Shown here in pieces: positions 14,342 to 27,723 of a stretch of 34,111 nt of DNA. The DNA is from Acidiferrobacteraceae bacterium (GTDB lineage Bacteria > Pseudomonadota > Gammaproteobacteria > Arenicellales > UBA868), in NCBI GenBank assembly GCA_002726415.1, contig PBSU01000035.1, positions 55,261 to 89,371 of the forward strand, given 5' to 3'. How positions within the stretch are numbered: position 1 is the stretch's first letter; every line of letters begins with the position of its first letter. The translations under genes and the position numbers were made by a program. The notes below the pieces were generated by a model. That model was not told where the DNA came from. It saw only the letters and a program-made list of their open reading frames with translations, and did no database searches.

Positions 14342-15310
14342 TTGAAAATCCTTTTTGCGGATAATTTTCCTGATGCCAAAATGGCATGGTTACGCGACCA
14401 GGGCCACGAATGCCGGCTTCAGCCGGATCTGGACGGGGAGACGCTTGCCGGTGCGATCGGGGATGCTGAGGTACTGGTAGTTAGGGGCACGAGGGTAACG
14501 GGGGAGACGCTGGCGGGGGCATCGGCCCTACGCCTGGTGATTCGGGCTGGTGCGGGCACCAACGCCATTGACAAGGAGGCCGCTGCGGCGCGGCAGATTC
14601 CGGTCTGCAATGTACCCGGGAAAAACGCCATCGCCGTTGCCGAGCTGGTTATCGGGTTGCTGATTGCTATTGACCGCAACATTCCAGATAACGTAGCCGA
14701 CTTGCGTGCCGGTCAATGGAACAAGAAGAAGTACTCCGTCGCTCGGGGTTTATACGGCAGGCATATGGGAATCGTGGGGTTGGGAGCGATTGGCCTGGCC
14801 GTGGCGCAACGGGCCCGGGCTTTCGGTATTCACGTGTATGTCGTTGACAAGCCGGGCCGCAGTCCCGAAATGCGCCAGGCAGTCGATGCGCTGGAGCTTG
14901 TCGTGGTGCCGGATTTAGCGGCTTTAGTGGCTCGTTGCGACATCATCAGTCTGCACGTACCGGCGGTTGCCCAGACCAAAGGCATGGTGGACAGGGCATT
15001 TCTGGCCTCGGTACAGCCCGGCACCATCATCCTGAACGCGTCACGGGGCGATGTGATTGACGAAGCGGCCTTGCTCAGCGCCATGGAGGAGAAAGGCGTG
15101 CGTGCTGGCCTCGACGTGTATGTTGATGAGCCCGTGACAGGTGAGGCATCTTTCATGTCAGCCCTGGCCTGTCATCCCAATACCTGCGGGACCCACCATA
15201 TTGGTGCCTCGACCAAACAGGCCCAGGATGCCGTTGCCCAAGGGGTTTTGCAGATTGTAGAAGCATTTGGCAAGGGTCAAATCCTCCACTGCGTCAATGG
15301 CCAGGTGTAA
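14342..15310 (+). CDS. serA: D-3-phosphoglycerate dehydrogenase (short form)
   Basis: This enzyme oxidises 3-phosphoglycerate to 3-phosphohydroxypyruvate with NAD, the first step of serine synthesis. The 322-residue protein is a D-isomer 2-hydroxyacid dehydrogenase. The Rossmann motif is GLGAIG (146-151) followed by an acidic VVDKPG. The catalytic triad is Arg235 (NASRGD), Glu263 (VDEP) and His286 (HHIGAS). The start is a TTG at 14342, four bases after GGGGG; it yields the expected KILFADNF beginning, and no ATG fits. It lacks the C-terminal ACT domain of E. coli SerA, so serine feedback by that route is absent. Adjacent serC and serB make phosphoglycerate the likely substrate rather than another hydroxyacid. 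Confidence 0.9.
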   Translation: MKILFADNFPDAKMAWLRDQGHECRLQPDLDGETLAGAIGDAEVLVVRGTRVTGETLAGASALRLVIRAGAGTNAIDKEAAAARQIPVCNVPGKNAIAVAELVIGLLIAIDRNIPDNVADLRAGQWNKKKYSVARGLYGRHMGIVGLGAIGLAVAQRARAFGIHVYVVDKPGRSPEMRQAVDALELVVVPDLAALVARCDIISLHVPAVAQTKGMVDRAFLASVQPGTIILNASRGDVIDEAALLSAMEEKGVRAGLDVYVDEPVTGEASFMSALACHPNTCGTHHIGASTKQAQDAVAQGVLQIVEAFGKGQILHCVNGQV

Positions 15311-15337
15311 GATCGCCCTTTTTTCTGGAGAATGATT

Positions 15338-16426
15338 ATGACCGAACGAGTGCACAATTTCAGTGCGGGCCCGTGCACCTTGCCGTTATCTGCGCTTGAA
15401 GAGGCTCAGGCGGAATTCGTGGATTATCAGGGTGCGGGTATGGCCCTGATCGAGATGAGCCACCGGGGTAAACATTTTGTTGCGGTCTACGAAGAGGCCA
15501 TTGCCCTGGTGCGTAGTGTATTCGGCGTCCCCCAAGACTTTGATGTCCTGTTTTTACAGGGCGGTGCTACGTTGCAGTTTGCGATGGTACCGATGAATCT
15601 ACTGAGTGACGGGCGTAAGGGGGGTTACGTCAATTCAGGTACTTGGGCCAAAGGGGCTATTGCCGATGCGAAACCCTATGGTGAGATTTATACCGCCTGG
15701 GATGGAGCCGACTGTGGTTACAGTCGGATGCCGCAATCGGCGGAGTTGCAGATGCAGAGCGATACCCGATACCTGCATATCACTTCCAACGAGACCATCG
15801 GTGGAATCCGGTTTTGCGAGTGGCCCCAGGTTGACGTGCCCTTGATCGCCGATATGTCATCAGACTATATGGCGCGACCCATTCCTTGGGATCGCTTCGA
15901 CCTGGTTTATGGCGGAGCGCAGAAGAACCTTGGGCCTGCGGGTATGGCACTGGTGATCGTTCGTAAGAACGTGGCACGGGATAATAACCGTGATATCGCT
16001 CGGTATCTGCGCTACGACATTCATGCGGACAAGGATTCCATGTTCAATACCCCACCGGTCTTTCCGATTTACGTGCTGGGCAAAGTACTGAAATGGATGC
16101 AGGAGCAGGGCGGGGTTGAGGCCATGGAAAGTCAGGCCGAAGAAAAGGCGGGAATCCTCTACCAGGCGATAGATAACAGTGATGGGTACTACCGCTGCCC
16201 GGTGGACGCCGGCTCAAGGTCGGTGATGAACGTCGTATTCCGCCTGCCCACGGAAGAGCTTGAGAAAGCATTTCTCGCGGAGGCGGACAAGGCAAAACTG
16301 CTTAACCTCAAGGGTCACCGTAGTGTCGGTGGTTGCCGTGCCAGCATTTATAACGCCATGCCGCGTGCAGGTGTGCAAGCGCTGGCAGATTTTATGGCAA
16401 CTTTTCGTTCCTCGAACCGTGGCTGA
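15338..16426 (+). CDS. serC: Phosphoserine aminotransferase
   Basis: The PLP enzyme transfers an amino group from glutamate to 3-phosphohydroxypyruvate. The 362-residue protein begins ERVHNFSAGPCTLP, the SerC signature. It has LFLQGGATLQFAMVPMNL, HITSNETIGGIRF, DMSSDYMARP and the PLP-lysine in GGAQKNLGPAG (Lys196). The C-terminal KGHRSVGGCRASIYNAMP matches the family. The ATG at 15338 is chosen over 15332 because GGAG (15327-15330) is 7 bases upstream of it. It follows serA by 27 bases and precedes the DUF1015 gene by 28, so the genes are likely co-transcribed. Confidence 0.96.
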   Translation: MTERVHNFSAGPCTLPLSALEEAQAEFVDYQGAGMALIEMSHRGKHFVAVYEEAIALVRSVFGVPQDFDVLFLQGGATLQFAMVPMNLLSDGRKGGYVNSGTWAKGAIADAKPYGEIYTAWDGADCGYSRMPQSAELQMQSDTRYLHITSNETIGGIRFCEWPQVDVPLIADMSSDYMARPIPWDRFDLVYGGAQKNLGPAGMALVIVRKNVARDNNRDIARYLRYDIHADKDSMFNTPPVFPIYVLGKVLKWMQEQGGVEAMESQAEEKAGILYQAIDNSDGYYRCPVDAGSRSVMNVVFRLPTEELEKAFLAEADKAKLLNLKGHRSVGGCRASIYNAMPRAGVQALADFMATFRSSNRG

Positions 16427-16454
16427 GGCCAGTTGCGTGTACCCAGGGGGATAG

Positions 16455-17687
16455 GTGACGCAGATACGCACTTTCAGACCCTACGTGGTTTCGGCCGAGC
16501 ACGCCACGGATACCGTCAGCCCGGCCTATGACTCGTTGAGTCCGGCACAGCGCCTTGCTTTTCGTGAGGCGCACCCGCACAACTACATCAATGCTATGCG
16601 GGCAACGGATGATTTTCCCTCTGGCCAGCGCCCCTCAGAGGAGCAGGTACTCAAGGAAAATATTGCCCAGCTGCAGCAGTTTCTGACGGACGGCGCCTAC
16701 CATCGCTGTGTCGAGGAGGGGATTTTCGTTTATGAAATTGGTGTTGAGGGCCATACCCAGACGGGCATCGTGGCTGAGATTCCCATTGCTGAGTATGAGA
16801 GTGGATTAGTCCGAAAACACGAAGGGACCCGTAAGGAGCACGAGGTGCGGCTCAGTCAGTACCTCGATACCGTCGGTGCGAGCTCGAGTCCAATCTGCCT
16901 GGCCTATGAGGGATCGACGGAGATCGACACGATAGTCAACGTGGCCGCCGGGCAAGATCCTGTACTGGATTTCTTGCTGCCAGATGGTGTACGCCAGCGG
17001 TTATGGCAAGTGACTGATTCAGCCCAGCTCCAAGCTCTGCGAACCGCATTTCTCCCAGTCGAGGCCACCTATCTGACCGATGGGCACCATCGTGCCGCTT
17101 CAACATTGCATCATGCTGCGAGCCGGCGCGCCGCCGGGAAGGGCGAGGGCCCCTGGGATTACCTGTTAGTCGTACTGTTTCCGGCAGACCAGTTGCGCGT
17201 GCTTCCCTTTAATCGTTGTGTGCGTGATCTGGGTGACATGATGCCGGCCGAACTGCTGGCTGCATTGGCGGAGGATTTCGTTATCGAGCCGGTTGCGCAA
17301 GATCAAAAGATCACATCGCCGGAGAAACGGGGTCAGTTCGTGATGTTACTTGATGGCCAGGCGACACGGCTCAGCCTACGCCAGCCCGTGCATGATGCGT
17401 CCCCAGTGAATAATCTGGATGTCTCGATCCTGCAGAATCGGGTTCTCGCGCCACTGCTGGGTATTCATGATGCGCGCGAGGATCCCCGGCTGGATTATGT
17501 GACAGGCGACAGTGGTATTCCTGGGCTGGTGCAGCGTTGCAGTGAGGGCTGGCAACTGGGGTTTGCCTGTTTCCCCACGTCACTTTCCGAATTGATGGCG
17601 GTGGCTGATGCTGGAGAGGTAATGCCACCCAAGTCGACCTGTTTCGATCCTAAACCTAGATCCGGAATTTTCATACGCATGTCCTGA
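16455..17687 (+). CDS. DUF1015 family protein
   Basis: A 410-residue cytosolic protein of the DUF1015 family, starting at GTG 16455 with AGGGGG four bases upstream. Recognisable family blocks are RTFRPYVVSAEHATDTVSPAYD at the start (DUF1015 proteins begin with F-x-P-x-x-x, then P-P-Y-D-like text). Later come LVRKHEGTRKEHEVRL, the invariant-looking TDGHHRAAST and FPADQLRVLPFNR. The function of the family is not established. Its place between serC and serB on the same strand suggests a role in serine or phosphoserine metabolism, and in many genomes it neighbours serA or serC. The DGHH and KHE motifs look like catalytic or metal-binding residues, but that is inference. Confidence 0.88.
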   Translation: MTQIRTFRPYVVSAEHATDTVSPAYDSLSPAQRLAFREAHPHNYINAMRATDDFPSGQRPSEEQVLKENIAQLQQFLTDGAYHRCVEEGIFVYEIGVEGHTQTGIVAEIPIAEYESGLVRKHEGTRKEHEVRLSQYLDTVGASSSPICLAYEGSTEIDTIVNVAAGQDPVLDFLLPDGVRQRLWQVTDSAQLQALRTAFLPVEATYLTDGHHRAASTLHHAASRRAAGKGEGPWDYLLVVLFPADQLRVLPFNRCVRDLGDMMPAELLAALAEDFVIEPVAQDQKITSPEKRGQFVMLLDGQATRLSLRQPVHDASPVNNLDVSILQNRVLAPLLGIHDAREDPRLDYVTGDSGIPGLVQRCSEGWQLGFACFPTSLSELMAVADAGEVMPPKSTCFDPKPRSGIFIRMS

Positions 17688-17724
17688 TAACGCGGTATAA
17701 GATCAGCTTTACGAAAACTATTGC

Positions 17725-17733
17725 TGTTATAGT
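17725..17733 (+). promoter_or_regulatory. Extended -10 promoter of serB (short-leader mRNA)
   Basis: TGTTATAGT is an extended -10 (TGn plus TATAGT). The start would fall near 17740, only about 8 bases before the serB ATG at 17748. That ATG has no Shine-Dalgarno, consistent with a leaderless or nearly leaderless message. Confidence 0.5.
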
Positions 17734-17747
17734 GCGCGCTGCGTTCA

Positions 17748-18992
17748 ATGAAAGAGATTGTACTCATTAAGGTGTCAGGCCATGATCGGCCGGGCATCAC
17801 CGCCCAGTTAACCACGGTGCTTGGTCGCTTTGGCGTCAATGTGCTCGACATCGGGCAGGCCGTGATCCACAATGAGTTGTCCTGGGGCATGCTGGTGGAA
17901 ATCCCTCCAGGGCCGGCGAGTACGCCTGTTTTTAAGGAATTGCTTTTTACGGCGCATGAGCTTGATCTGGATGTGCGCATCACCCCCGTATCTGAGTCGG
18001 ATTATTCCAACTGGGTGGGCGAACAGGGACAAGCCCGGCACGTCATTACGGTACTCGGCCGCCAGATCAAGGCCGAGCATCTGAGCCGGGTAGCCGAGTT
18101 GATTACGGTCAACCGGTTGAATATCGATAAGATCGTGCGGCTCTCCGGTCGTGCCCTGCTCAGCACCCCGGAATACCAGCGCCAGGCTGCCATCGAGTTT
18201 TCTGTGCGTGGCACCGTAACGGACATGTCGGTAATGCGGGCGACTTTTCTGCATCTTTCGCAGGTTATGGATGTAGACGTTGCCATCCAGAGTGACGATG
18301 CATTTCGCCGCAACCGCCGGCTCGTCTGTTTTGATATGGACTCGACACTGATCCGCAACGAGGTAATCGATGAATTGGCTAAAGTCCATGGTGTTGCTGA
18401 ACAGGTCCAGTCAATTACGGCATCCGCAATGCGCGGCGAGATTGACTTCGGGGAGAGTTTCCGTGCGCGGGTTGCCCTTCTGGCCGGCCTTGAAGAAAGC
18501 GCCTTGGCGGGGGTTGCCGATTCGTTGGTTGTGACGGGAGGAACTGAGCGGCTGTTGGCCATATTGCGCCACTTTCGTTTTCGCACGGCGATTCTGTCAG
18601 GTGGGTTTACCTTTTTCGCTCGTTACCTGCAGCAACGACTTGGGGTGGATATCATCCATGCCAACGAGCTCGAAATTGTGGATGGTCGGGTTACTGGCCG
18701 AGTTACGGGTCCAATCGTCGATGAACAGGCCAAAGCCATACTGCTTGAGAGGATTGCCAAGGCTGAGGGCATCCGTCTGGAGCAGGTGATTGCCGTAGGT
18801 GATGGCGCCAATGATCTGCCTATGCTTAGTCGGGCGGGTCTGGGTATCGCGTTCCGGGCAAAGCCGATCGTGCGTCAAAAGGCTGATTACCATCTTAGAT
18901 CCACTGGCCTGGACGCAATTCTCTACCTGATTGGCATGCGCGACCGCGATTTTGAAGAGGTCGCCTGTAGCGGCTCTGTGCCCGACGCCTGA
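17748..18992 (+). CDS. serB: Phosphoserine phosphatase with N-terminal ACT domains
   Basis: This enzyme dephosphorylates phosphoserine, the last step of serine synthesis. The 414-residue protein begins KEIVLIKVSGHDRPGITAQL, an ACT-type amino-acid-binding region (about residues 1-80, with a second related segment to about 180). A HAD phosphatase domain follows. HAD motif I is DMDSTL with nucleophile Asp196 and Asp198, motif II is in LSGGFTFFA, and motif III is GDGANDLPML. Many gammaproteobacterial and mycobacterial SerB share this two-part layout, which allows allosteric control by serine. The ATG at 17748 gives the exact family N-terminus despite lacking a ribosome site. It has its own likely promoter in the 60-base gap after the DUF1015 gene. 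Confidence 0.95.
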   Translation: MKEIVLIKVSGHDRPGITAQLTTVLGRFGVNVLDIGQAVIHNELSWGMLVEIPPGPASTPVFKELLFTAHELDLDVRITPVSESDYSNWVGEQGQARHVITVLGRQIKAEHLSRVAELITVNRLNIDKIVRLSGRALLSTPEYQRQAAIEFSVRGTVTDMSVMRATFLHLSQVMDVDVAIQSDDAFRRNRRLVCFDMDSTLIRNEVIDELAKVHGVAEQVQSITASAMRGEIDFGESFRARVALLAGLEESALAGVADSLVVTGGTERLLAILRHFRFRTAILSGGFTFFARYLQQRLGVDIIHANELEIVDGRVTGRVTGPIVDEQAKAILLERIAKAEGIRLEQVIAVGDGANDLPMLSRAGLGIAFRAKPIVRQKADYHLRSTGLDAILYLIGMRDRDFEEVACSGSVPDA

Positions 18993-19209: not shown

Positions 19210-19917
19210 ATGAGTGACGAACAACCTGACGATCTGGACCTGAGCACTCTGTCTGACGAAGAATTGGTCGAACAGATGCATGACGATCTCTATGATGGCC
19301 TCAAAGAAGAGATTGAGGAGGGCACCAACATCCTGCTTCAGCGAGGTTGGGGTCCCGATAAAGTGCTGGCCAATGCCCTGGTTGAGGGCATGCGTATCGT
19401 GGGCATTGATTTTCGCGATGGGATTCTCTTTGTACCGGAAGTTCTGATGGCGGCCAACGCGATGAAAGGCGGTATGGCGATACTGCGGCCCCTGCTCGCC
19501 GAGACGGGCGCTGAAACGGTGGGTCGCGTGGTGATTGGCACTGTTAAGGGTGATATACACGATATTGGCAAAAACCTCGTCGGTATGATGTTGGAAGGCG
19601 CCGGTTTTGAGGTTTTCGATCTGGGCATTAATAACCCCGTTGAGAACTATCTCGAGGCAATCGAGGAGCATAAGCCCGATATAATCGGCCTGTCTGCTCT
19701 GTTGACCACGACCATGCCCTACATGAAGGTGGTCATTGATACCCTGGTGGAGCAGGGATTGCGGGATGACTACATCGTGATGGTGGGAGGCGCCCCACTT
19801 AATAATGAGTTCGGTGAGGCAATTGGAGCCGATGCTTATTGCCGTGATGCCGCTGTCGCGGTTGAGACTGCCAAACAACTTGTTGCTGAAAAAAGAACGC
19901 ACCGACAGACAGCCTGA
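19210..19917 (+). CDS. Corrinoid (B12-binding) methyl-carrier protein, MtgC/MttC-like
   Basis: A 235-residue protein that carries the methyl group on a cobalamin cofactor between methyltransferases. An N-terminal helical cap domain (about residues 10-95, with the ILFVPEVLMAANAMKGG block) is followed by a Rossmann-like B12 domain. The cobalt-ligand motif D-x-H-x-x-G is GDIHDIGKNL, followed by GFEVFDLGINNP and GLSALLTTTMPYM, and VGGAPLNNEF near the end. AAGGA lies 9 bases before the ATG. The first 20 residues are acidic and precede the usual start of the family. It heads the C1 module. Which substrate-specific methyltransferase methylates it cannot be told, since none is encoded in the window. 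Confidence 0.93.
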   Translation: MSDEQPDDLDLSTLSDEELVEQMHDDLYDGLKEEIEEGTNILLQRGWGPDKVLANALVEGMRIVGIDFRDGILFVPEVLMAANAMKGGMAILRPLLAETGAETVGRVVIGTVKGDIHDIGKNLVGMMLEGAGFEVFDLGINNPVENYLEAIEEHKPDIIGLSALLTTTMPYMKVVIDTLVEQGLRDDYIVMVGGAPLNNEFGEAIGADAYCRDAAVAVETAKQLVAEKRTHRQTA

Positions 19918-19935
19918 GTAACTGTGGTCACTAGG

Positions 19936-19970
19936 CCGCGGCAGGTTTAACGTCTTGCCGAACGCCGCGG
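19936..19970 (+). terminator. Hairpin after the corrinoid gene
   Basis: CCGCGG at 19936-19941 and again at 19965-19970 (self-complementary) can form a 6-bp stem. An alternative stem is CGGCA (19939-19943) with TGCCG (19956-19960). The right arm is followed by TTTACCC. It may partly terminate or stabilise the corrinoid mRNA relative to downstream genes. Confidence 0.4.
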
Positions 19971-20012
19971 TTTACCCACTCAGGCTATTTTCGGCCCCAT
20001 GAGCACGAGGTT

Positions 20013-20639
20013 ATGGCCAAAGTCCCAGCATTGGAGAAAAGCCTGGTTATCGCCTGTGGCGCACTGGCGCATGAAATCACGGCGCTGCTGCGACTCAACG
20101 GTTGGAATCATCTGGAGATTCAATGCTTGCCCGCAAGCCTGCATAATCAGCCACGACTGATTGCCCCAGCGGTGCGTGAAAAGGTGCACCAATGTCGGGG
20201 TCAGTTCAAGGCAATTTTTGTCGCTTACGCGGATTGTGGCACTGGCGGCCAGTTGGATAAGGTTCTGGCAGAAGAAAAGCTGGAAAGGTTGCCCGGAGCA
20301 CATTGTTACGAATTCTTTTGGGGATCCCATGCCTTTCTGGAACGGCATGAACGGGAACCGGGCGTTTTTTACCTGACCGATTTTCTGGCACGCCATTTTG
20401 ATCGATTGGTAATGGACGAACTCGGCATAAACCGTCATCCGCAACTGCTGGAGACTTATTTTTCGGCGTATTCCACGTTGGTTTATCTGGCGCAGACTGA
20501 GTCGCCACAAACCCTGTCACTAGCCCGCTCTGCCGCGCAGGTGCTGGGTTTAGAGTTTGAGGTTATCCGCACTGGCTATGGCGCACTGGAGGTAGGGCTC
20601 GCTGAATTCAGCCGGGCATCTGAGGGTATGATGAAATAG
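20013..20639 (+). CDS. DUF1638 family protein
   Basis: A 208-residue protein of the DUF1638 family. The typical blocks are visible: LVIACGALAHEITALLR near the start, CLPASLHNQPRLI, then FVAYADCGTGGQLD, and CYEFFWG. Conserved Cys residues (CGAL, CLPA, ADCGTGG, HCYEFF) are consistent with a metal or cofactor site. The biochemical function is not established. I associate the family with corrinoid protein and methyltransferase clusters, and here it lies between the corrinoid gene and the MetF group, which fits a role in corrinoid handling or methyl transfer. The ATG at 20013 has GAGG only 2 bases upstream, so the start is slightly uncertain, but no other good start is near. Confidence 0.88.
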   Translation: MAKVPALEKSLVIACGALAHEITALLRLNGWNHLEIQCLPASLHNQPRLIAPAVREKVHQCRGQFKAIFVAYADCGTGGQLDKVLAEEKLERLPGAHCYEFFWGSHAFLERHEREPGVFYLTDFLARHFDRLVMDELGINRHPQLLETYFSAYSTLVYLAQTESPQTLSLARSAAQVLGLEFEVIRTGYGALEVGLAEFSRASEGMMK

Positions 20640-20709
20640 GAATGTAAGTGCTTAGAGTTGTCACGAAGAAACACATCAATTCTCATTCCATCAGGATTGT
20701 GACTGCCTG

Positions 20710-20761
20710 ATTGATGGCGCAATCAATGACAATCAAGCATAGCTGCTATGCCAAAATTTTG
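20710..20761. promoter_or_regulatory. Cluster of palindromes before the virulence-factor-family gene
   Basis: Three inverted repeats follow one another: ATTGAT-N6-ATCAAT (20710-20727), GCATAGC-T-GCTATGC (20737-20751) and CAAAATTTTG (20752-20761). CAATCAA is also repeated at 20720 and 20730, one helical turn apart. They lie in a 249-base gap that splits the C1 module and may mark an internal promoter with operators. Confidence 0.4.
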
Positions 20762-20888
20762 CTTCATATCATGTATTTGATAGATCAGGAGCTAGCCAGA
20801 TTTCCGGGGCCAGCACGCATGAGCCACAAAGCTTATAGGCTGGCCTCGCCATCACGCGCGGGGAAGTGAAGTCGTTCCAGGAGAGACA

Positions 20889-21209
20889 ATGGCGAAATTA
20901 ATTACGGTTTTCTGGCGGGATATTCCGTCCCAGGTCATGGTGCGTAAAGGGCGCCAGACACTAAAGGCTATGCTCGGGCAGCGCTTTCAGGATGCGATCG
21001 ATCGTGCGGCGATGCGCGCGGGCAAGGGTTCATCAGATGCGTACTTGAGTGAATGGCGCCGTGACACCGAGCCCTGTAGTGATGAAAATCTGGACCAGAT
21101 TGTCCGCGATGCCGCTGAGCGTCTGGAGGGAATGTATGCTGATGAGGATCTGCTTATGTTGATCCGAGCCCACGGCTGTGCCAGCCCTGGCGCAGCACAA
21201 GCGGATTGA
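20889..21209 (+). CDS. 'Virulence factor' family small protein (PF13769-like)
   Basis: A 106-residue protein. The block KLITVFWRDIPSQVMVRKGRQT at the start, then LGQRFQDAIDRAAMRAGK and YLSEWRR, matches the small family labelled 'virulence factor' in domain databases. That label comes from distant annotation and does not describe a known activity. In C1-methyltransferase loci it occurs next to DUF1638 and MetF genes, as here. GGAGAG lies about 6 bases before the ATG. The stop overlaps the region just before the next gene (5 bases apart), so the two are translationally coupled. A role as a chaperone or subunit of the downstream reductase is plausible but unproven. Confidence 0.82.
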   Translation: MAKLITVFWRDIPSQVMVRKGRQTLKAMLGQRFQDAIDRAAMRAGKGSSDAYLSEWRRDTEPCSDENLDQIVRDAAERLEGMYADEDLLMLIRAHGCASPGAAQAD

Positions 21210-21214
21210 GCTTA

Positions 21215-21685
21215 ATGTATGCCCTAAGACAATGGTCCATCCGTAACGCCCAGGTACTGGAGTGGCTTTATGAGAATTTCGAAGGTGTAATGGTTGCGTT
21301 GCATCCTCTCTGGCTGTGGATGGGCTACAACCGCATTGAGGGACCCATCCGCGGCTTGGAACGTCGAATCAAGGCAACTCTGTTTGATTGTCGGATGTGT
21401 GGACGTTGTGTGTTGAGTCAGACCGGCATGTCCTGCCCGATGAACTGCCCGAAGGAATTACGCAACGGCCCCTGCGGCGGTGTGCGGGAAGACACCTTCT
21501 GTGAAATTCAACCACAGATGCGCTGTGTCTGGGTAGATGCTTGGGAGGGCTCCGCGCGTATGCGTGACGGTTCTGGAATTGGGCGTGTCCAGCCCCCACT
21601 GGCCCAGGGTCACCGAGGCCGGTCTTCGTGGTTACGCGAAGTTCGCGAGAAACGTGATCGCCGATTTTTTGGCAGCGGAGATTAA
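21215..21685 (+). CDS. Methylenetetrahydrofolate reductase C-terminal-like iron-sulfur protein (MetV-like)
   Basis: A 156-residue Cys-rich protein of the MTHFR_C family, which partners MetF in acetogens (MetV) and other bacteria. Eight Cys are visible at residues 59, 62, 65, 74, 78, 87, 96 and 104, in C-x-x-C-G-x-C, TGMSCPMNCP and RNGPCGG contexts. They probably bind iron-sulfur clusters or zinc. It would pass electrons between MetF and an acceptor other than NADH. The ATG at 21215 gives the normal family start (YALRQW); the TTG at 21206 lies on the previous stop. The C-terminus (VQPPLAQGHRGRSSWL) matches relatives, so the overlap with a longer metF frame is not a frameshift. Confidence 0.88.
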   Translation: MYALRQWSIRNAQVLEWLYENFEGVMVALHPLWLWMGYNRIEGPIRGLERRIKATLFDCRMCGRCVLSQTGMSCPMNCPKELRNGPCGGVREDTFCEIQPQMRCVWVDAWEGSARMRDGSGIGRVQPPLAQGHRGRSSWLREVREKRDRRFFGSGD

Positions 21686-21686
21686 T

Positions 21687-22691
21687 TTGATTCACGGCGA
21701 TGAACCGATGCCCGGCATGCCCCTGCCGATTCTGGAAGGACACGCATCAGCGGGCCGGCTGGAGCGGGTACTGCGAGCCGGGCGGTTTGCAGTTACCACC
21801 GAAATTGCACCACCTGATACAGCGGATGCCCAAGCGGTTTTTGAAAGGGCAAGTGTATTCGATGGCTCGGTTGATGCCATCAATGCGACCGACGGATCTG
21901 GCGCTAACTGCCATATGTCCAGTGTCGGAGTGTGTGCCCTGCTCACGCGTAGAGGTTATGCGACGGTCATGCAGGTCTCTTGTCGGGATCGAAACCGGAT
22001 TGCGATCCAGGGTGATGTGCTCGGTGCAGCAGCAATGGGTGTGACGAGTATTCTCTGCCTTACGGGAGACGGGGTACAGGCTGGCGATCAGCCCCATGCC
22101 AAGCCGGTATTCGATTTTGACTGCATGAGTCTGCTGGAGACGGTTACAGTCATGCGGGATCAGGGTGAATTTCTCAGTGGTCGTAAACTCAATAACCCAC
22201 CCCGGGTTTTTATCGGTGCCGCGGCCAATCCTTTTGCCCCGCCACTGGATTATCGGCCTTTACGGTTGAAGAAAAAAATCGATGCCGGCGCACAGTTTGT
22301 TCAGACGCAATACTGCTTTGATCTGGAACAGCTCAAGTCTTATATGGTCCAGGTGCGAGACATGGGCCTGACCGAGCAGTGCTATATCCTGGTGGGGGTC
22401 GGGCCTCTGGCCTCTGCCCGTACGGCGGCATGGATACGCGATAATGTGCCAGGGGTACACATTCCCGACCCTGTCATTCGTCGATTGCTCGGGTCTGAAA
22501 ACCAGCGTGAAGAGGGTATCCGAATCTGCGTGGAGATGATCCAGGCGATTCGCGAGATTGAAGGGGTGCACGGCGTGCACATTATGGCTTATCGGCAGGA
22601 AGAGCGGGTAAGTGACATAGTTAGGGAGTCTGGTGTGCTGGAGGGAAGAATGCCCTGGCATCCGGGTTTAACACAACGTTTAATTGATTAA
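21687..22691 (+). CDS. metF: Methylenetetrahydrofolate reductase
   Basis: The FAD enzyme interconverts methylene-THF and methyl-THF. The family core is clear: RAGRFAVTTEIAPPDTADAQ, NATDGSGANCHMSSVG, QVSCRDRNRIAIQGDVLGA, CLTGDGVQAGDQP, GAAANPFAPP, KIDAGAQFVQTQYCFD and VGVGPLASARTA. The start is uncertain. A TTG at 21687 sits one base after the previous stop with GGAG six bases upstream, giving 334 residues. An ATG at 21708 gives 327 residues with a weak site. The open frame further upstream lies inside the preceding gene. With the MetV-like partner and a corrinoid methyltransferase beside it, it may run in the oxidative direction, from methyl-THF to methylene-THF, rather than for methionine synthesis. 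Confidence 0.92.
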   Translation: MIHGDEPMPGMPLPILEGHASAGRLERVLRAGRFAVTTEIAPPDTADAQAVFERASVFDGSVDAINATDGSGANCHMSSVGVCALLTRRGYATVMQVSCRDRNRIAIQGDVLGAAAMGVTSILCLTGDGVQAGDQPHAKPVFDFDCMSLLETVTVMRDQGEFLSGRKLNNPPRVFIGAAANPFAPPLDYRPLRLKKKIDAGAQFVQTQYCFDLEQLKSYMVQVRDMGLTEQCYILVGVGPLASARTAAWIRDNVPGVHIPDPVIRRLLGSENQREEGIRICVEMIQAIREIEGVHGVHIMAYRQEERVSDIVRESGVLEGRMPWHPGLTQRLID

Positions 22692-22703
22692 GAGGTAGAG
22701 CAA

Positions 22704-23615
22704 GTGACAGTAACTGTTGTCAGTTCAGCAACCAAGGAAGTGAAAATCGGTTTTGATCAACCATTTTGTGTAATCGGTGAGCGAATCAACCCGACCGGAC
22801 GGAAGGTGCTGGCCGCCGAAATGAAAGCCGGTGACTACAGTCGTGTCGAGTCCGATGCGCTCGCACAGGTAGCGGCTGGGGCTCATATGCTGGATGTCAA
22901 TGCGGGTATTCCGTTGGCCGACGAGCCAGCCATATTGGCTGAGTGTGTAAAGCTAGTGCAGTCGCTGACCGATGTGCCGCTGTCAATCGATTCTTCGATC
23001 GTTGCGGCGCTGGAGTCGGGTCTGTCCGTGTACCAGGGCAAGGCACTGGTTAACTCGGTTACCGGAGAGGAGGAGCGGCTGGAACAGGTATTGCCACTGG
23101 TGAAAAAATATAATGCAGCCGTGGTCGCGATTTCCAACGATGAAACGGGCATCTCCGAGAATCCTGACGAGCGTTTTGCCGTGGCGCGCAAGATCATCGA
23201 GCGGGCAGCGGATCACGGTATTCCGGCACAGGACGTGGTCGTCGATCCGTTGGTGATGCCTGTCGGCGCTCTGAATAATGCGGGTCAACAGGTGATGCAC
23301 ATCCTGCAGCGGCTGCGCGATGAACTCAAGGTCAACAGTACCTGTGGTGCGTCCAATGTCAGTTTTGGGCTGCCCAATCGCAATGGCCTGAATGCCGCTT
23401 TCCTGACGATGGCAATTGGTGCCGGGATGACTTCGGCAATTACCAGTCCATTACACACGGAAGTAATGCAGGCCGTGATGGGGGCGGATGTGATGATGGG
23501 GCACGATCCGGATTGTTTGCGTTGGATCTCCCGATTCCGCGAACCATTGGCAGAGGGTCAAGTTAGCGCCCGTGAAAGGCGCCGTCGCGGGCGCCGTCAG
23601 TCAGCCGGTGCCTGA
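22704..23615 (+). CDS. Methyltetrahydrofolate:corrinoid methyltransferase (MtgA/MeTr-like)
   Basis: A 303-residue pterin-binding TIM-barrel enzyme that moves a methyl group between corrinoid protein and THF. Motifs are CVIGERINPTGRK at the start and the pterin aspartate region HMLDVNAG. Next come PLSIDSS, VNSVTGEEERL, VVDPLVMPVG and GASNVSFGLPNR. These match AcsE (MeTr) and MtgA. It starts at GTG 22704 with AGAGG about 8 bases upstream. The tail ends in a very basic ARERRRRGRRQSAGA segment, absent from most relatives. It is too short for MetH, and no homocysteine domain is present, so it is not methionine synthase. The corrinoid protein encoded at 19210 is the obvious partner. Confidence 0.92.
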   Translation: MTVTVVSSATKEVKIGFDQPFCVIGERINPTGRKVLAAEMKAGDYSRVESDALAQVAAGAHMLDVNAGIPLADEPAILAECVKLVQSLTDVPLSIDSSIVAALESGLSVYQGKALVNSVTGEEERLEQVLPLVKKYNAAVVAISNDETGISENPDERFAVARKIIERAADHGIPAQDVVVDPLVMPVGALNNAGQQVMHILQRLRDELKVNSTCGASNVSFGLPNRNGLNAAFLTMAIGAGMTSAITSPLHTEVMQAVMGADVMMGHDPDCLRWISRFREPLAEGQVSARERRRRGRRQSAGA

Positions 23616-24009
23616 GAAATTCATTGCCGGCAGTTGCCTATGTGGGGCAGTCCGCTTTACGGTCTGCGCGCCACTGCGGCCGGTGTTGGTCTGCCATTGT
23701 TCGCAGTGTCGTAAGACTAGCGGTCACTACTGGGCGGCCACTTCAGCGCCTTGGGCTAATGTGAATATTGAGCATGATGGCGCTCTAAAATGGTTTCAGT
23801 CATCGGTACACGCTCAGAGAGGGTTCTGCCGGTACTGCGGGTCCAGCCTGTTCTGGCGGCATACAGCGCAGGATACCCTCGCTATTGCAGCCGGCGCCTT
23901 AGATGGGCCCACGGGACTACATACTCAGGCCCATATCTTTTTCACAGATGCGTCGGACTACTACCGGGTGCACCCAGATGAAGCCACGTTCGAGGGCAGT
24001 GCATACTGA
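23608..24009 (+). CDS. GFA-family (Mss4-like) zinc-binding protein
   Basis: A 133-residue protein of the GFA/CENP-V fold. The zinc-binding Cys pairs are present: GSCLCGAVRF, then CHCSQCRKTSGHYWA, then FCRYCGSSLFW. The founding member was proposed to promote formaldehyde-glutathione adduct formation, but the family is broad and most members are uncharacterised. A GTG at 23608 starts close to the first motif and overlaps the upstream stop by 8 bases; an alternative GTG at 23572 would overlap by 44. Neither has a strong ribosome site, so translational coupling is likely. Its insertion in a C1 module hints at formaldehyde or methylene-THF chemistry. Confidence 0.82.
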   Translation: MPEKFIAGSCLCGAVRFTVCAPLRPVLVCHCSQCRKTSGHYWAATSAPWANVNIEHDGALKWFQSSVHAQRGFCRYCGSSLFWRHTAQDTLAIAAGALDGPTGLHTQAHIFFTDASDYYRVHPDEATFEGSAY

Positions 24010-26036
24010 TGAACGCCCACAAAACTGAGACTTTTACTGGGGAGGCGGTGCGCGTGGTTTTCACTCCCTCGGGTCGGCGTGGCCGGGTCGAGCGAGGCAT
24101 CACGGTACTGCAGGCTGCTCGTGAACTGGGCGTCGATCTGGATTCAGTCTGCGGCGGCAGGGCAATCTGTGGTCGCTGCCAGGTGACCCTCAGTGAAGGG
24201 TCGTTTCCCAAACATGGTATTGAGTCGATCCCCCAGCACCTCTCTGAACTGGGCGAAAACGAGATAGCGTACGATGTGGCTGGCGGACTGGCCCAAGGCC
24301 GCCGACTCGGATGTTCCGCCCGACTCCTGGGTGATGCAGTAATCGATATCCCGCCTGAGAGTCAGGTCCACCGGCAGGTGGTACGTAAGCGGACCGAGGT
24401 ACACGACCTGTCCGTTAACCCCCTGGTGCACCTGCACGTGGTAGAGGTACCCGCGGCCAGCCTGCATCAAGCCGTGTCGGATCTTCGCCGTCTGGAAGAA
24501 GAGTTGGAATTCGAATGGGGTCTTACGGAACTGCGTTGTGACCCATATGTGTTGGCCAGATTGCAACTGGCGCTGCGCGAAGGCCAACGGCAGGTGACCG
24601 TTGCGGTATACCGGGAGCACGAGATTATTGCAATCTGGCCGGGTTACCACGAGACCGTACTGGGGCTGGCTGTTGATGTGGGTTCTACGACCATCGCGGC
24701 CCATCTGATCGATCTGACCAGTGGAAAAGCCCTTGCTTCTTCCGGGCAAATGAATCCTCAGATTCGGTTCGGCGAAGACCTGATGAGTCGCGTTTCCTAC
24801 ATCATGATGCATCCGGGCAGTGAGGTGGAAATGTCACGTGTGGTGCGTCAGACCCTGGCCGAGTTAGTGACCCAGGTGTGCCAGGAAGCCAGCCAGTGCG
24901 CCGACAATATCCTTGATTGCACCTTCGTGGGCAACCCTATCATGCACCATTTGCTGCTTGGGATTTCCCCGGTTGAACTGGGAGGGGCTCCGTTTGCGCT
25001 GGCGACCGATAGCGCAGTCACGTTGCCAGCACAAGAGCTTGATCTGGGAGTGAATCCGGGGGCACGCTGTTATGTATTGCCCTGTATGGCAGGCCATGTC
25101 GGTGCGGACTGCGCTGCGGTCGTACTGTCTGAGGCGCCATATCTTCGAGAGGAAATGACGCTGCTGGTCGATGTCGGCACCAATGCAGAGATTGTACTGG
25201 GTAACCGGGATCGCCTGCTGGCTGCCAGCAGCCCCACGGGCCCGGCTTTTGAAGGGGCTCAGATCAGTGGTGGCCAGCGCGCTGCCCCCGGCGCCATTGA
25301 ACGGGTACGTATTGATCGGGATACGCTGGAACCACGCTTTCGGGTGATTGGGTGTGAGTTATGGTCGGACGATCCTGATTTTGAGCAGGCGGTCGCAGCG
25401 GTGGGAATCACCGGGATTTGCGGCTCTGGCATTATCGAGGTGTTGGGTGAGATGTATCTTGCCGGTATCGTCAGCCCTGATGGCGTGATTGACGGCAGTT
25501 TGGCCGAACGATCTGACCGGATAATTGCGCAGGGTAAAACATTTGGATTTGTTCTGCATCGAGGCGAGGTGGGTGTAGCGGTGACTCAAAAAGATGTGCG
25601 TGCAATTCAACTCGCTAAGGCGGCGCTTTATGCCGGGGTGCGACTGCTGATGGACAAGCTTGGCATCGAGACTGTTGATCGCATCCGGTTGGCCGGAGCT
25701 TTTGGCTCGCACATCGATGTCAAGTACGCCATGGTGCTGGGTTTGATTCCCGACTGTAAACTCGATCGCGTGACATCGGCGGGTAACGCGGCAGGTAGTG
25801 GCGCCCATATTGCCCTGGTAGATAAGAATGCTCGAGCTGAGATCGAGCGGGAAATCCGTCGTATCGAAAAAGTCGAGACCGCCGTAGAGCCTCGCTTCCA
25901 GGAGCATTTTATTGAAGCGATGGCGATTCCCCATAAGAGTGCTCCATTTAAGTGCCTGGCCGAGACGGTGGCACTGCCGACGCCTCCTGCCGCACCCGCA
26001 TCTCGCCCCACAGGTAGCCGGCGGCGAAAAAGGTAA
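24009..26036 (+). CDS. Corrinoid reductive activator (RACo/RamQ-like, DUF4445)
   Basis: A 675-residue protein with an N-terminal 2Fe-2S ferredoxin domain joined to an ASKHA-type ATPase. Ferredoxin Cys are at 48, 54, 57 and 102 (VCGGRAICGRCQ and LGCSA). A linker leads to LAVDVGSTTIAAHLIDL, the phosphate-1 loop, with NPQIRFGEDLMSR, CTFVGNPIMHHLLLG, LLVDVGTNAEIVLG and RLAGAFGSHID. Such proteins use ATP to drive electrons to corrinoid that has slipped to the inactive Co(II) state. The ATG at 24009 overlaps the previous stop (TGATG). The C-terminal 30 residues are Pro/Arg-rich and variable. Its presence is the strongest sign that the corrinoid enzymes here operate catalytically in a catabolic C1 route. 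Confidence 0.93.
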   Translation: MNAHKTETFTGEAVRVVFTPSGRRGRVERGITVLQAARELGVDLDSVCGGRAICGRCQVTLSEGSFPKHGIESIPQHLSELGENEIAYDVAGGLAQGRRLGCSARLLGDAVIDIPPESQVHRQVVRKRTEVHDLSVNPLVHLHVVEVPAASLHQAVSDLRRLEEELEFEWGLTELRCDPYVLARLQLALREGQRQVTVAVYREHEIIAIWPGYHETVLGLAVDVGSTTIAAHLIDLTSGKALASSGQMNPQIRFGEDLMSRVSYIMMHPGSEVEMSRVVRQTLAELVTQVCQEASQCADNILDCTFVGNPIMHHLLLGISPVELGGAPFALATDSAVTLPAQELDLGVNPGARCYVLPCMAGHVGADCAAVVLSEAPYLREEMTLLVDVGTNAEIVLGNRDRLLAASSPTGPAFEGAQISGGQRAAPGAIERVRIDRDTLEPRFRVIGCELWSDDPDFEQAVAAVGITGICGSGIIEVLGEMYLAGIVSPDGVIDGSLAERSDRIIAQGKTFGFVLHRGEVGVAVTQKDVRAIQLAKAALYAGVRLLMDKLGIETVDRIRLAGAFGSHIDVKYAMVLGLIPDCKLDRVTSAGNAAGSGAHIALVDKNARAEIEREIRRIEKVETAVEPRFQEHFIEAMAIPHKSAPFKCLAETVALPTPPAAPASRPTGSRRRKR

Positions 26037-26117
26037 AGCAGGTCGCCTTGTTTGAAGGGGGCGAGATGTTTACCCTTGGGGTATACATCAGTGTCTCGGG
26101 AGGTGGGCGTTTTGATA

Positions 26118-26768
26118 ATGGATGTGATCGAGAAAGTACCCCTGTTTTCTGCCCTGGAGCCAGAGGATTTGCAGGCTGTAGCAGTTTTGGCTCGCCCCGT
26201 CACCGCGCAACGCGGGGAGATCATCATCAGCCAGGGATCGGCCGGGGATGCGCTCTACATTGTGGTCAGTGGCCGAGTTCGAGTCTACGTGGCGGATGAG
26301 GAGGGCAGGGAGATGGTGCTGGGTCTCGAAGGCCCGTATGCGATCTTCGGCGAGATTGCTATCCTCGATGGTTCGGTTCGTTCCGCATCTGTTGCCGCAA
26401 TGGAGTGTACTGAGCTTCTCAAAATCGGCGCAGCAGATTTTCTTGATCTGCTGGAAAGCAATACAAGGCTCGCCCGATCTGTAATCGGGTCGTTGGCAGG
26501 ATTGATTCGTAAACTCACTGATGCCACTCAGGGACTAGCGTTGGATAGCGTTTATCGACGTCTGGTGGCACGACTCCAGGAGCGTGTGGTCGAGGAGAAT
26601 GGATTACAAGTGATACCGGAAAGACTGACCCACCAGTTGCTTGCCGACATGATTGGCTGTTCCCGGGAGATGGTCAGCCGAATCATGAGTGATCTCGGCA
26701 AGGGTGGGTATATTCGCCTTGAAGCCGGGCGGTGGGTTATCCAGCGCAAATTGCCGGCAGACTACTGA
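26118..26768 (+). CDS. CRP/FNR-family transcriptional regulator
   Basis: A 216-residue regulator with an N-terminal cyclic-nucleotide-binding fold and a C-terminal helix-turn-helix. The sensor domain shows ISQGSAGDALYIVVSGRVRVY and FGEIAILDGSVRSAS, where the Gly-Glu and Arg-Ser residues match the cAMP pocket of CRP. The DNA-binding domain reads ADMIGCSREMVSRIMSDL; its R-E-x-x-x-R recognition helix is CRP-like, so a TGTGA-type half-site is expected. No FNR-type Cys cluster is present. The start at ATG 26118 or TTG 26112 is uncertain: GGAGG at 26099-26103 suits the TTG better. It follows the reactivator gene by 81 bases and may regulate this C1 module. Confidence 0.88.
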   Translation: MDVIEKVPLFSALEPEDLQAVAVLARPVTAQRGEIIISQGSAGDALYIVVSGRVRVYVADEEGREMVLGLEGPYAIFGEIAILDGSVRSASVAAMECTELLKIGAADFLDLLESNTRLARSVIGSLAGLIRKLTDATQGLALDSVYRRLVARLQERVVEENGLQVIPERLTHQLLADMIGCSREMVSRIMSDLGKGGYIRLEAGRWVIQRKLPADY

Positions 26769-26898
26769 GCACGAATCAAGCGATGAATAGGCAGATGACC
26801 GTTTGCGATGATCGGTGTGAGTGCTGGGCGGGCGGGTATTCCCGATAGCATATCCCGCGTTTTGAGCGAGAATGCAAGGGCACATCAAAGGGGCACCT

Positions 26899-27723
26899 AT
26901 GACGGTCGGAGTGATTCAGAAAATGCGCACCGGACTTGGACCACCGGTGACATACCAGTTGCCGATAGGGGAGAGCCTGATTGAGCTCAATACTCTGATC
27001 GGCCACGAGTTGCAGATTACGTTTGCCGGCGTGATCAACTGCCTTGCCTGTGGGCGAAAAATCACAAAAAGTTTCAACCAAGGGCATTGTTATCCGTGCT
27101 TTAAGCGTCTGGCCTCCTGCGATCAATGCATTATCAAGCCAGAGTTATGTCATCTTCATGAAGGCACCTGCCGTGAGCCTGACTGGGGTCAAAGACACTG
27201 TCTGCAGCCCCATGTGGTTTACCTCGCGAATTCCTCCGGGCTCAAGGTCGGGATCACCCGGGCGACCCAGGTACCCACCCGCTGGATCGACCAGGGGGCG
27301 ACTCAGGCTCTGCCGATCTTTAACGTCAGTGAACGGCGCATTTCAGGATTGCTGGAGGTGGCTATGCGACAGGTGGTTTCTGATCGTACTGATTGGCGCC
27401 GTATGCTTAAGGGGAGTCCCGACAAGCTTGATATGATCGGCGAACGTGATCGCCTACTGGCCCAGGCGAGCACGGCGATCGGGGAGGTTGCAAAGGTACA
27501 TCAGGATGGAGAAGTGGTTGCAGCACCGGTGATACCGGTCTGTGAGATTACGTATCCGGTACACCGCTACCCCGATAAAATCCGTGCCCACAACCTCGAC
27601 AAGACACCCCGTATTGAGGGACGCCTGTGGGGTATCAAAGGTCAATACCTGATATTGGATAGCGGCGTGCTGAATATCCGAAAGTTTGGTGGCTACCAAG
27701 TGTCGCTAGAGCATCAGACATAG
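26899..27723 (+). CDS. DUF2797 family protein
   Basis: A 274-residue cytosolic protein of the DUF2797 family. The ATG at 26899 has GGGG about 6 bases upstream; an earlier ATG at 26872 has no site. The N-terminal half holds Cys-rich blocks that look like zinc or iron-sulfur ligands: CLACGRKI, NQGHCYPCFKRLASCDQCIIKPELCH and EGTCREP. A conserved segment VYLANSSGLKVGITRATQVPTRWIDQGA follows, then a C-terminal beta domain. The KVGITR motif resembles the core of GIY-YIG-like nucleases (I infer this; residues HVVYLAN...GLKVGIT fit VYL-x-x-x-x-x-x-KVGI). The function is unknown. It converges on cbbM with only 29 bases between. Confidence 0.85.
   Translation: MTVGVIQKMRTGLGPPVTYQLPIGESLIELNTLIGHELQITFAGVINCLACGRKITKSFNQGHCYPCFKRLASCDQCIIKPELCHLHEGTCREPDWGQRHCLQPHVVYLANSSGLKVGITRATQVPTRWIDQGATQALPIFNVSERRISGLLEVAMRQVVSDRTDWRRMLKGSPDKLDMIGERDRLLAQASTAIGEVAKVHQDGEVVAAPVIPVCEITYPVHRYPDKIRAHNLDKTPRIEGRLWGIKGQYLILDSGVLNIRKFGGYQVSLEHQT

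What the first reader, a model, noticed from the sequence alone, without database searches (positions are those of the whole stretch)
19210..26768. Compact corrinoid/THF C1 module with no substrate methyltransferase
Nine genes in one direction: corrinoid carrier, DUF1638, virulence-factor family, MetV-like, MetF, methyl-THF:corrinoid methyltransferase, GFA-family, RACo-like reactivator, CRP-type regulator. Everything needed to move a methyl group from a corrinoid to THF and oxidise it is present except the MttB/MtgB-type enzyme that takes the methyl group from the primary substrate. The gap may be filled elsewhere in the genome, or DUF1638 or the virulence-factor family protein may supply a missing activity. 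The presence of form II RuBisCO and Sat makes a mixotrophic methylated-compound sulfur oxidiser plausible.
Basis: partly seen in the sequence, partly recalled or inferred. Interest (0 to 1): 0.75.

Follow-up and report, generated by a model that had tools for sequence, protein, structure and literature searches.

The report
Methyl-transfer core with unlinked first enzyme
A nine-gene cluster in a bacterium that probably oxidises sulfur carries the shared vitamin B12 machinery that strips methyl groups from compounds such as glycine betaine and probably also makes methionine; the apparently missing first enzyme is simply encoded elsewhere in the genome, so the system is of a known kind, though two of its small proteins remain unexplained.

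Summary
In detail: all nine genes are at the stated places, on one strand, with the stated families, and no MttB match lies on this contig. The "gap" is a matter of linkage. The same genome holds seven MttB-family matches. One (contig C34), between ETF genes and a dimethylglycine-dehydrogenase-like gene, is the best paralogue match for 44 of 56 MttB genes found near this cluster in other genomes and matches a solved glycine betaine methyltransferase. The genome also has an MtgE-type gene next to metA and no detected MetH activation domain. The cluster is thus the MtgC/MtgD/MetF2/RamA/DUF1638 core of the MtgBCDE system published for Ruegeria in 2025, probably doubling as split methionine synthase. 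DUF1638 or the "virulence factor" protein replacing MttB is not supported: both co-occur with MttB, and DUF1638 also follows RACo, a corrinoid protein and a URO-D methyltransferase where MttB is absent. Open: what these two do. DUF1638 keeps three cysteines and a histidine in 80 of 80 relatives; the virulence-factor family shares MttB's distribution in a 274-genome sample (15 and 15), with exceptions outside it. New member of a known kind.

The parts
19210..19917 (+). mtgC: corrinoid protein, DxHxxG motif at residue 115
   Evidence: PF02310 98 bits, PF02607 59.6 bits; motif
20013..20639 (+). DUF1638 protein; invariant C15, H44, C75, C98
   Evidence: PF07796 99.2 bits; conservation; model pLDDT 93.7
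20889..21209 (+). Virulence_fact-family protein, 106 aa, WRDIP motif
   Evidence: PF13769 76.8 bits; alignment; model pLDDT 90.3
21206..21685 (+). MetV-type protein with eight cysteines
   Evidence: PF12225 86.6 bits; cysteines
21708..22691 (+). MetF2-type methylene-THF reductase; start uncertain (open frame from 21537; other start codons at 21687 and 21717)
   Evidence: PF02219 124.5 bits; start candidates
22704..23615 (+). mtgD: methyl-THF:corrinoid methyltransferase, AcsE/MetH-pterin type
   Evidence: PF00809 104.2 bits; PRK07535 365.9 bits over 259; solved matches
23572..24009 (+). GFA-family protein, start uncertain (23572 or 23608)
   Evidence: PF04828 72.2 bits; start candidates
24009..26036 (+). 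RACo/RamA-like reductive activase with 2Fe-2S domain
   Evidence: PF14574 296 bits, PF17651, PF17650, PF00111; solved RACo 3zyy
26052..26768 (+). CRP/FNR-type regulator
   Evidence: PF00027, PF13545, PF00325

Best explanation
The cluster is the common core of the aerobic MtgBCDE cobalamin methyl-transfer system. An MttB-family enzyme encoded elsewhere (most likely the C34 gene; others for other substrates) moves a methyl group from a quaternary amine such as glycine betaine onto Co(I) of MtgC. MtgD moves it to THF. MetF2 with the MetV-type partner oxidises methyl-THF to methylene-THF, which feeds C1 oxidation or serine. RACo uses ATP to re-reduce the Co(II) that forms by side reaction. In the other direction MtgD loads MtgC from methyl-THF and the MtgE-type protein on C69 makes methionine. 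DUF1638 is an accessory of the corrinoid protein, working with RACo, perhaps through a metal or thiol site made of C15, H44, C75 and C98. The virulence-factor protein is a further accessory of the MttB-linked version. Shown here: gene content, conservation, co-occurrence, location of the partners. Inferred: substrate, direction of flux, and the roles of DUF1638, the virulence-factor protein, GFA and the CRP regulator. The confidence is for the assignment to the MtgBCDE core; for the DUF1638 role alone it is about 0.6.
For: Seven MttB matches in the genome. C34 MttB lies between etfAB and a DAO+GCV_T (dimethylglycine-dehydrogenase-like) gene; in three relatives with a similar cluster its 76-85% identical counterpart lies beside ETF genes, with a DMGDH-like match in two of the three, one at only 36%. 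C34-type is the best of the genome's paralogues for 44 of 56 MttB genes near the cluster, in 50 loci. C34 MttB matches a solved glycine betaine methyltransferase, 9yce, 431.9 bits. MtgE-type PRK07534 469.9 bits (cut-off 338) beside a homoserine O-succinyltransferase gene. No PF02965 match; PF01717 only in open frames of 346-376 aa. A second MTHFR on C26. In print: mtgC and mtgD mutants of R. pomeroyi are methionine auxotrophs and do not grow on glycine betaine even with methionine, mtgC complemented; MetF2, RamA and DUF1638 more abundant on N-osmolytes (PMC12478193, parts 1-3 of 6 read); DUF1638 and RamA-like mutants rescued by methionine in P. inhibens (PMC5764234, passages).
Against: No function was tested. 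The genome is 79.9% complete, so absence of metH is not proven. Unlike 34 of 50 well-flanked loci, which have MttB within 7 kb, the MttB is unlinked here, so the pairing is inferred. MtgC scores under the cut-offs of NCBIfam's glycine-betaine MtgC models (212 of 370; 184.8 of 310), and no MttB of this genome reaches the trimethylamine model's cut-off, the only NCBIfam model they match. C18 MttB has its own corrinoid protein, so not every MttB need use this one. Two further stand-alone PF02574 proteins could compete for the MtgE role. The role of DUF1638 rests on association.
Confidence: 0.85

Rival explanations
1. The cluster serves mainly or only methionine synthesis (split MetH), and the MttB enzymes use other corrinoid proteins.
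For: MtgE-type gene beside metA, no PF02965 match, no full-length MetE frame. C18 MttB has its own corrinoid protein. MttB is unlinked here.
Against: The oxidative-looking partners MetV and a second MetF are in the cluster while another MTHFR is on C26. MttB is in 51 of 80 related loci and in 13 of 13 genomes searched whose locus lacks it. MtgC and MtgD serve both roles in R. pomeroyi (PMC12478193).
Confidence: 0.1
2. DUF1638 or the virulence-factor protein is itself the substrate methyltransferase that replaces MttB.
For: Both lie inside the cluster next to the corrinoid protein and neither has an assigned function; MttB is not on this contig.
Against: In the class sample both occur with MttB, not instead of it. 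DUF1638 also follows RACo, a corrinoid protein and a URO-D-family methyltransferase in G249 and G116. The genome has seven MttB matches.
Confidence: 0.03
3. The main substrate is not glycine betaine but another methylated compound taken by one of the other MttB paralogues (C24, C28, C40, C73, C18, C4).
For: Seven MttB matches, 24-50% identical to each other over the aligned parts, with different neighbours.
Against: C34-type is the usual neighbour of the cluster in other genomes (44 of 56 genes) and sits with ETF and DMGDH-like genes. The two ideas can both be true.
Confidence: 0.15

Closest known systems
MtgBCDE glycine betaine demethylase / split methionine synthase of Ruegeria pomeroyi and Phaeobacter inhibens (PMC12478193, PMC5764234)
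   Same: MtgC, MtgD, MetF2, RamA-like, DUF1638, MttB-family MtgB and an MtgE-type protein are all present; no MetH activation domain found. The paper already reports mtgC in SUP05 genomes.
   Different: Here C, D, MetF2, RamA and DUF1638 form one cluster with Virulence_fact, MetV, GFA and a CRP regulator, while mtgB and mtgE are unlinked. The words 'virulence' and 'GFA' do not occur in the main text of PMC12478193 (its figures are not held).
MtgB-MtgC-MtgA of Desulfitobacterium hafniense (PMC7154762, passages)
   Same: MttB-family methyltransferase, corrinoid protein and THF methyltransferase
   Different: The THF methyltransferase here is AcsE/MetH-pterin-like; the paper says MtgA lacks sequence identity with known structures, and 6SJ8/6SK4 were not among the 17 sequence matches.
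RACo / RamA reductive activases
   Same: RACo domain set with a 2Fe-2S domain; solved RACo 3zyy matches at 293.4 bits
   Different: Accompanied by DUF1638 in 18 of 19 RACo genomes of the class sample
RACo-corrinoid-URO-D methyltransferase clusters (here in G249 and G116)
   Same: RACo, corrinoid protein and DUF1638
   Different: URO-D-family methyltransferase; no MttB or Virulence_fact match in those genomes

Membership tests
MtgBCDE system | stand-alone corrinoid protein with DxHxxG motif | tested here: met
MtgBCDE system | stand-alone pterin-binding methyltransferase (MtgD) | tested here: met
   PRK07535 365.9 bits over 259
MtgBCDE system | PF06253 MtgB in the genome | tested here: met
   7 matches over cut-off; C34 matches solved glycine betaine methyltransferase 9yce
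MtgBCDE system | stand-alone homocysteine-binding MtgE | tested here: met
   PRK07534 469.9 bits over 338, beside metA; not compared directly with the Ruegeria or Phaeobacter protein
MtgBCDE system | MetF2, RamA-like and DUF1638 proteins | tested here: met
   MetF2 is assigned by position and family, not by comparison with SPO1862
MtgBCDE system | no classical MetH (true of most, not all, carriers in the paper) | tested here: inconclusive
   no PF02965 match, but genome 79.9% complete
MtgBCDE system | glycine betaine demethylation and methionine synthesis by the same MtgC | not testable with these tools
   needs genetics or enzymology
NCBIfam glycine-betaine MtgC models (NF047996, NF047995) | score over curated cut-off | tested here: not met
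   212 of 370 and 184.8 of 310 bits
D. hafniense MtgA | sequence match to the MtgA structures | tested here: inconclusive
   6SJ8/6SK4 not among 17 matches at E 0.001; that these entries are in the library was not checked
S-(hydroxymethyl)glutathione synthase (Gfa) | score over curated cut-off | tested here: not met
   19.7 of 249 and 19.4 of 234.55 bits; the broader Pfam GFA domain is met
Asp/Glu/hydantoin racemase fold (for DUF1638) | same fold | tested here: inconclusive
   VIA Z 9.3, rmsd 3.3, 114 aligned for 3s81, with an unrelated row (9s3o, Z 8.7) within 1; Foldseek best E 3.9e-3 to another family

The most novel reading that the evidence does not exclude
DUF1638 is an unrecognised metal- or thiol-dependent corrinoid-activation factor (site C15/H44/C75/C98) that acts with RACo on several kinds of corrinoid protein, and the virulence-factor protein is a second accessory, specific to the MttB branch, with no solved relative found; together they let an oxygen-sensitive Co(I) methyl transfer run in aerobic cells.
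Probability: 0.3. Interest if true: 0.6.

Novelty: new member of a known kind. Interest (0 to 1): 0.36.

Why it matters
It turns an apparent hole in a pathway into a question of gene linkage and points to the specific MttB gene to test. It shows the 2025 MtgBCDE gene set in a genome with dsrA and RuBisCO, so one corrinoid core may serve both methionine synthesis and osmolyte catabolism in a sulfur oxidiser (SUP05 carriers of mtgC were already reported in PMC12478193). DUF1638 has been an open question since its methionine phenotype was reported in 2018 (PMC5764234); four invariant residues and a fixed neighbour now give a direct test. The virulence-factor protein becomes a candidate further accessory; the paper searches made here (and the word search) did not find it discussed in this context.

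Tried and rejected
DUF1638 or the virulence-factor protein as replacement methyltransferase: rejected, see rivals. Virulence_fact always with MttB: weakened. Of five genomes whose cluster locus lacks Virulence_fact, three have none over cut-off anywhere (G285, G287, G290) and two have one elsewhere (G288, G289). Of the three, G285 has an MttB (weaker, E 1.6e-67) and G290 has one beside the cluster (L143, 44.7% to the C73 type); G287 was not searched for MttB; the completeness of these genomes was not told. Five DUF1638 matches of the class sample (G068, G111, G199, G218, G232; E 1e-6 to 1e-9, over the Pfam cut-off) were set aside as weak; with them 18 of 23 DUF1638 genomes have RACo. One Virulence_fact match below cut-off (G210) was set aside.

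Folds: DUF1638 gave no Foldseek match under E 0.001. The VIA top rows are Asp/Glu racemase-like (Z 9.3) with unrelated rows close behind, so no function was drawn from them. The virulence-factor model had no VIA row above Z 4.0 and no Foldseek match under E 0.1. Sequence profiles against solved structures gave best E 0.1 for DUF1638 and 0.02 (an antibody chain, taken as chance) for the virulence-factor protein. Distances between C15, H44, C75 and C98 could not be measured, as model coordinates were not at hand. MetV had no sequence match in solved structures. Rfam found nothing in the window; promoter-like and terminator-like sites were about as many as in shuffles (2 against 4.2; 7 against 6.4). 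The C24 MttB neighbours looked like a substrate clue but the ones tested were not found beside its 74% counterpart in L160, except two other genes of the contig.

Papers: searches are. PMC12478193: parts 1-3 of 6 read and passages. PMC5764234, PMC12542648, PMC7154762: passages only. All others only in search listings.
Full report
What is there. The nine genes of the finding are confirmed at 19210-26768, all on the + strand, with Pfam matches over cut-off for every named family. MtgC carries the DxHxxG cobalt-ligand motif, RACo has four cysteines in its 2Fe-2S domain, MetV eight cysteines and GFA paired cysteines as in zinc-binding members (positions; the meaning of the motifs is recalled). The methyl-THF:corrinoid methyltransferase is AcsE/MetH-pterin-like (PRK07535, 365.9 bits over 259; 17 solved matches including 2yci and 1q7m). 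It thus corresponds to MtgD of the marine system rather than to D. hafniense MtgA, whose structures 6SJ8/6SK4 (PMC7154762, passages) are not in that list.

The missing enzyme. The window's genome (1.99 Mb, 75 contigs, 79.9% complete) has seven PF06253 matches over cut-off, on C34, C24, C28, C40, C73, C18 and C4, those on C28 and C4 cut by contig ends; none is on C35, where the window lies. In an even sample of 274 genomes of the same class, 15 have MttB (at most five matches per genome were scored there). The same 15 genomes, from 11 families, hold all over-cut-off Virulence_fact matches. DUF1638 has strong matches in 18 (those 15 plus G116, G213, G249) and weak ones in 5. RACo is in the 18 plus G014. 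Tables and Fisher values are; they ignore shared ancestry. On the scored matches, DUF1638 and an MttB share a contig, 0.8 to 13.5 kb apart, in 8 of the 15.

Which MttB goes with the cluster. By tblastn with this genome's proteins, 78 of 80 hold MtgC, 75 Virulence_fact, 70 MtgD, 68 RACo, 45 MetV, 45 MetF, 51 an MttB, 22 a DMGDH-like match and 17 GFA. MtgC is directly upstream of DUF1638 in 74, Virulence_fact directly downstream in 75, and GFA lies between MtgD and RACo in 9 (many loci are cut by contig ends). Of 50 loci with at least 6 kb on both sides, 34 have MttB within 7 kb and 13 have none in the locus; all 13 of those genomes have MttB elsewhere, one of them (G285) only a weaker match. 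Among 56 MttB matches longer than 200 residues, in 50 loci, the C34 paralogue is the best of the genome's own for 44. It lies between etfAB and a DAO/GCV_T-domain gene; in three relatives with a similar cluster (G274, G275, G276) its 76-85% counterpart also lies beside ETF genes; and it matches a solved glycine betaine methyltransferase. This is the most likely MtgB.

Second role. The genome has a stand-alone PRK07534 gene (betaine-homocysteine methyltransferase type, as MtgE is described in PMC12478193) next to a homoserine O-succinyltransferase gene, plus two other PF02574 proteins, no PF02965 match, PF01717 only in frames of 346-376 aa and a second, higher-scoring MTHFR. This is the gene set of the dual glycine betaine demethylase and methionine synthase shown by mtgC and mtgD mutants, with mtgC complemented, in R. 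pomeroyi (PMC12478193, parts 1-3 of 6 read).

DUF1638. Price and co-workers reported that a DUF1638 mutant of P. [quoted passage not shown] The class sample here repeats that pairing. In G249 and G116, which have no MttB match, DUF1638 follows RACo, a corrinoid protein and a URO-D-family methyltransferase; in G213 only RACo and DUF1638 were identified. So DUF1638 goes with the corrinoid protein and its activase, not with one substrate methyltransferase. C15, H44, C75 and C98 are invariant in 18 of 18 aligned proteins, three of them at 22-26% identity, and in 80 of 80 named relatives (profile positions 13, 42, 73, 96, mapped by me). In the model (pLDDT 93.7) C15 and C75 follow strands, H44 ends a short helix and C98 starts one, all in the first half of an alpha/beta fold. 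A metal or thiol site is an inference.

Virulence-factor protein. A 106-aa protein with an invariant WRDIP motif in 14 of 14 aligned sequences, confidently modelled (pLDDT 90.3), with no convincing solved relative. In G143 its gene lies directly after a DMGDH-like gene, on another contig than DUF1638. Exceptions to its link with MttB are under Tried and rejected.

Organism. RuBisCO (PRK13475, 874.5 bits over 489; that this model is form II is recalled) and ATP sulfurylase (381.1 over 322.95) in the window and dsrA (628.2 over 392.85) in the genome fit a sulfur oxidiser. The nearest cluster layouts are in two gammaproteobacterial MAGs (L064, isolate BS30m-G50, and L074) and a Candidatus Thioglobus MAG (L077): serA-serC-DUF1015 upstream, GFA inside and the CRP gene at the end, no MttB in the locus; L074 and L077 show no MetV or MetF match there, and serB was matched in none of the 80 loci.

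Verdict. An ordinary and now explained gap: a known system with two unexplained accessory proteins that are well placed for testing.

Noticed in passing
L033:9094-16448 (window's genome, contig C24): An MttB paralogue lies beside a dihydropyrimidine-dehydrogenase-like gene, an amidohydrolase and a class-III aminotransferase, hinting at an unusual methylated substrate; these neighbours were not found beside its 74% counterpart in L160.
   Followed up: partly
L037:3793-6032 (window's genome, contig C18): A divergent MttB overlaps by 4 bases with its own corrinoid protein gene; hydantoinase/5-oxoprolinase-looking genes lie around it (named by eye, not searched).
   Followed up: partly
L036:2936-4973 (window's genome, contig C73): Another MttB paralogue lies beside a second GFA-family gene on the opposite strand, so a GFA protein accompanies corrinoid methyl-transfer genes twice in this genome.
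   Followed up: no
14342-18992: serA-serC-DUF1015-serB directly upstream of the cluster; serA, serC and DUF1015 are there in L064, L074 and L077 too, suggesting a link between methylene-THF and serine.
   Followed up: partly
20640-20888: A 249-bp gap between DUF1638 and Virulence_fact; in 75 loci with both genes the gap is -35 to 100 bp, median -1. No RNA family and no promoter-like site of the simple scan in it.
   Followed up: partly
26872-27723: DUF2797 protein (330 bits) between the CRP gene and the RuBisCO gene.
   Followed up: no
G014:C14:24893-25654: RACo match without a DUF1638 match in the genome and with one in-frame TGA.
   Followed up: no
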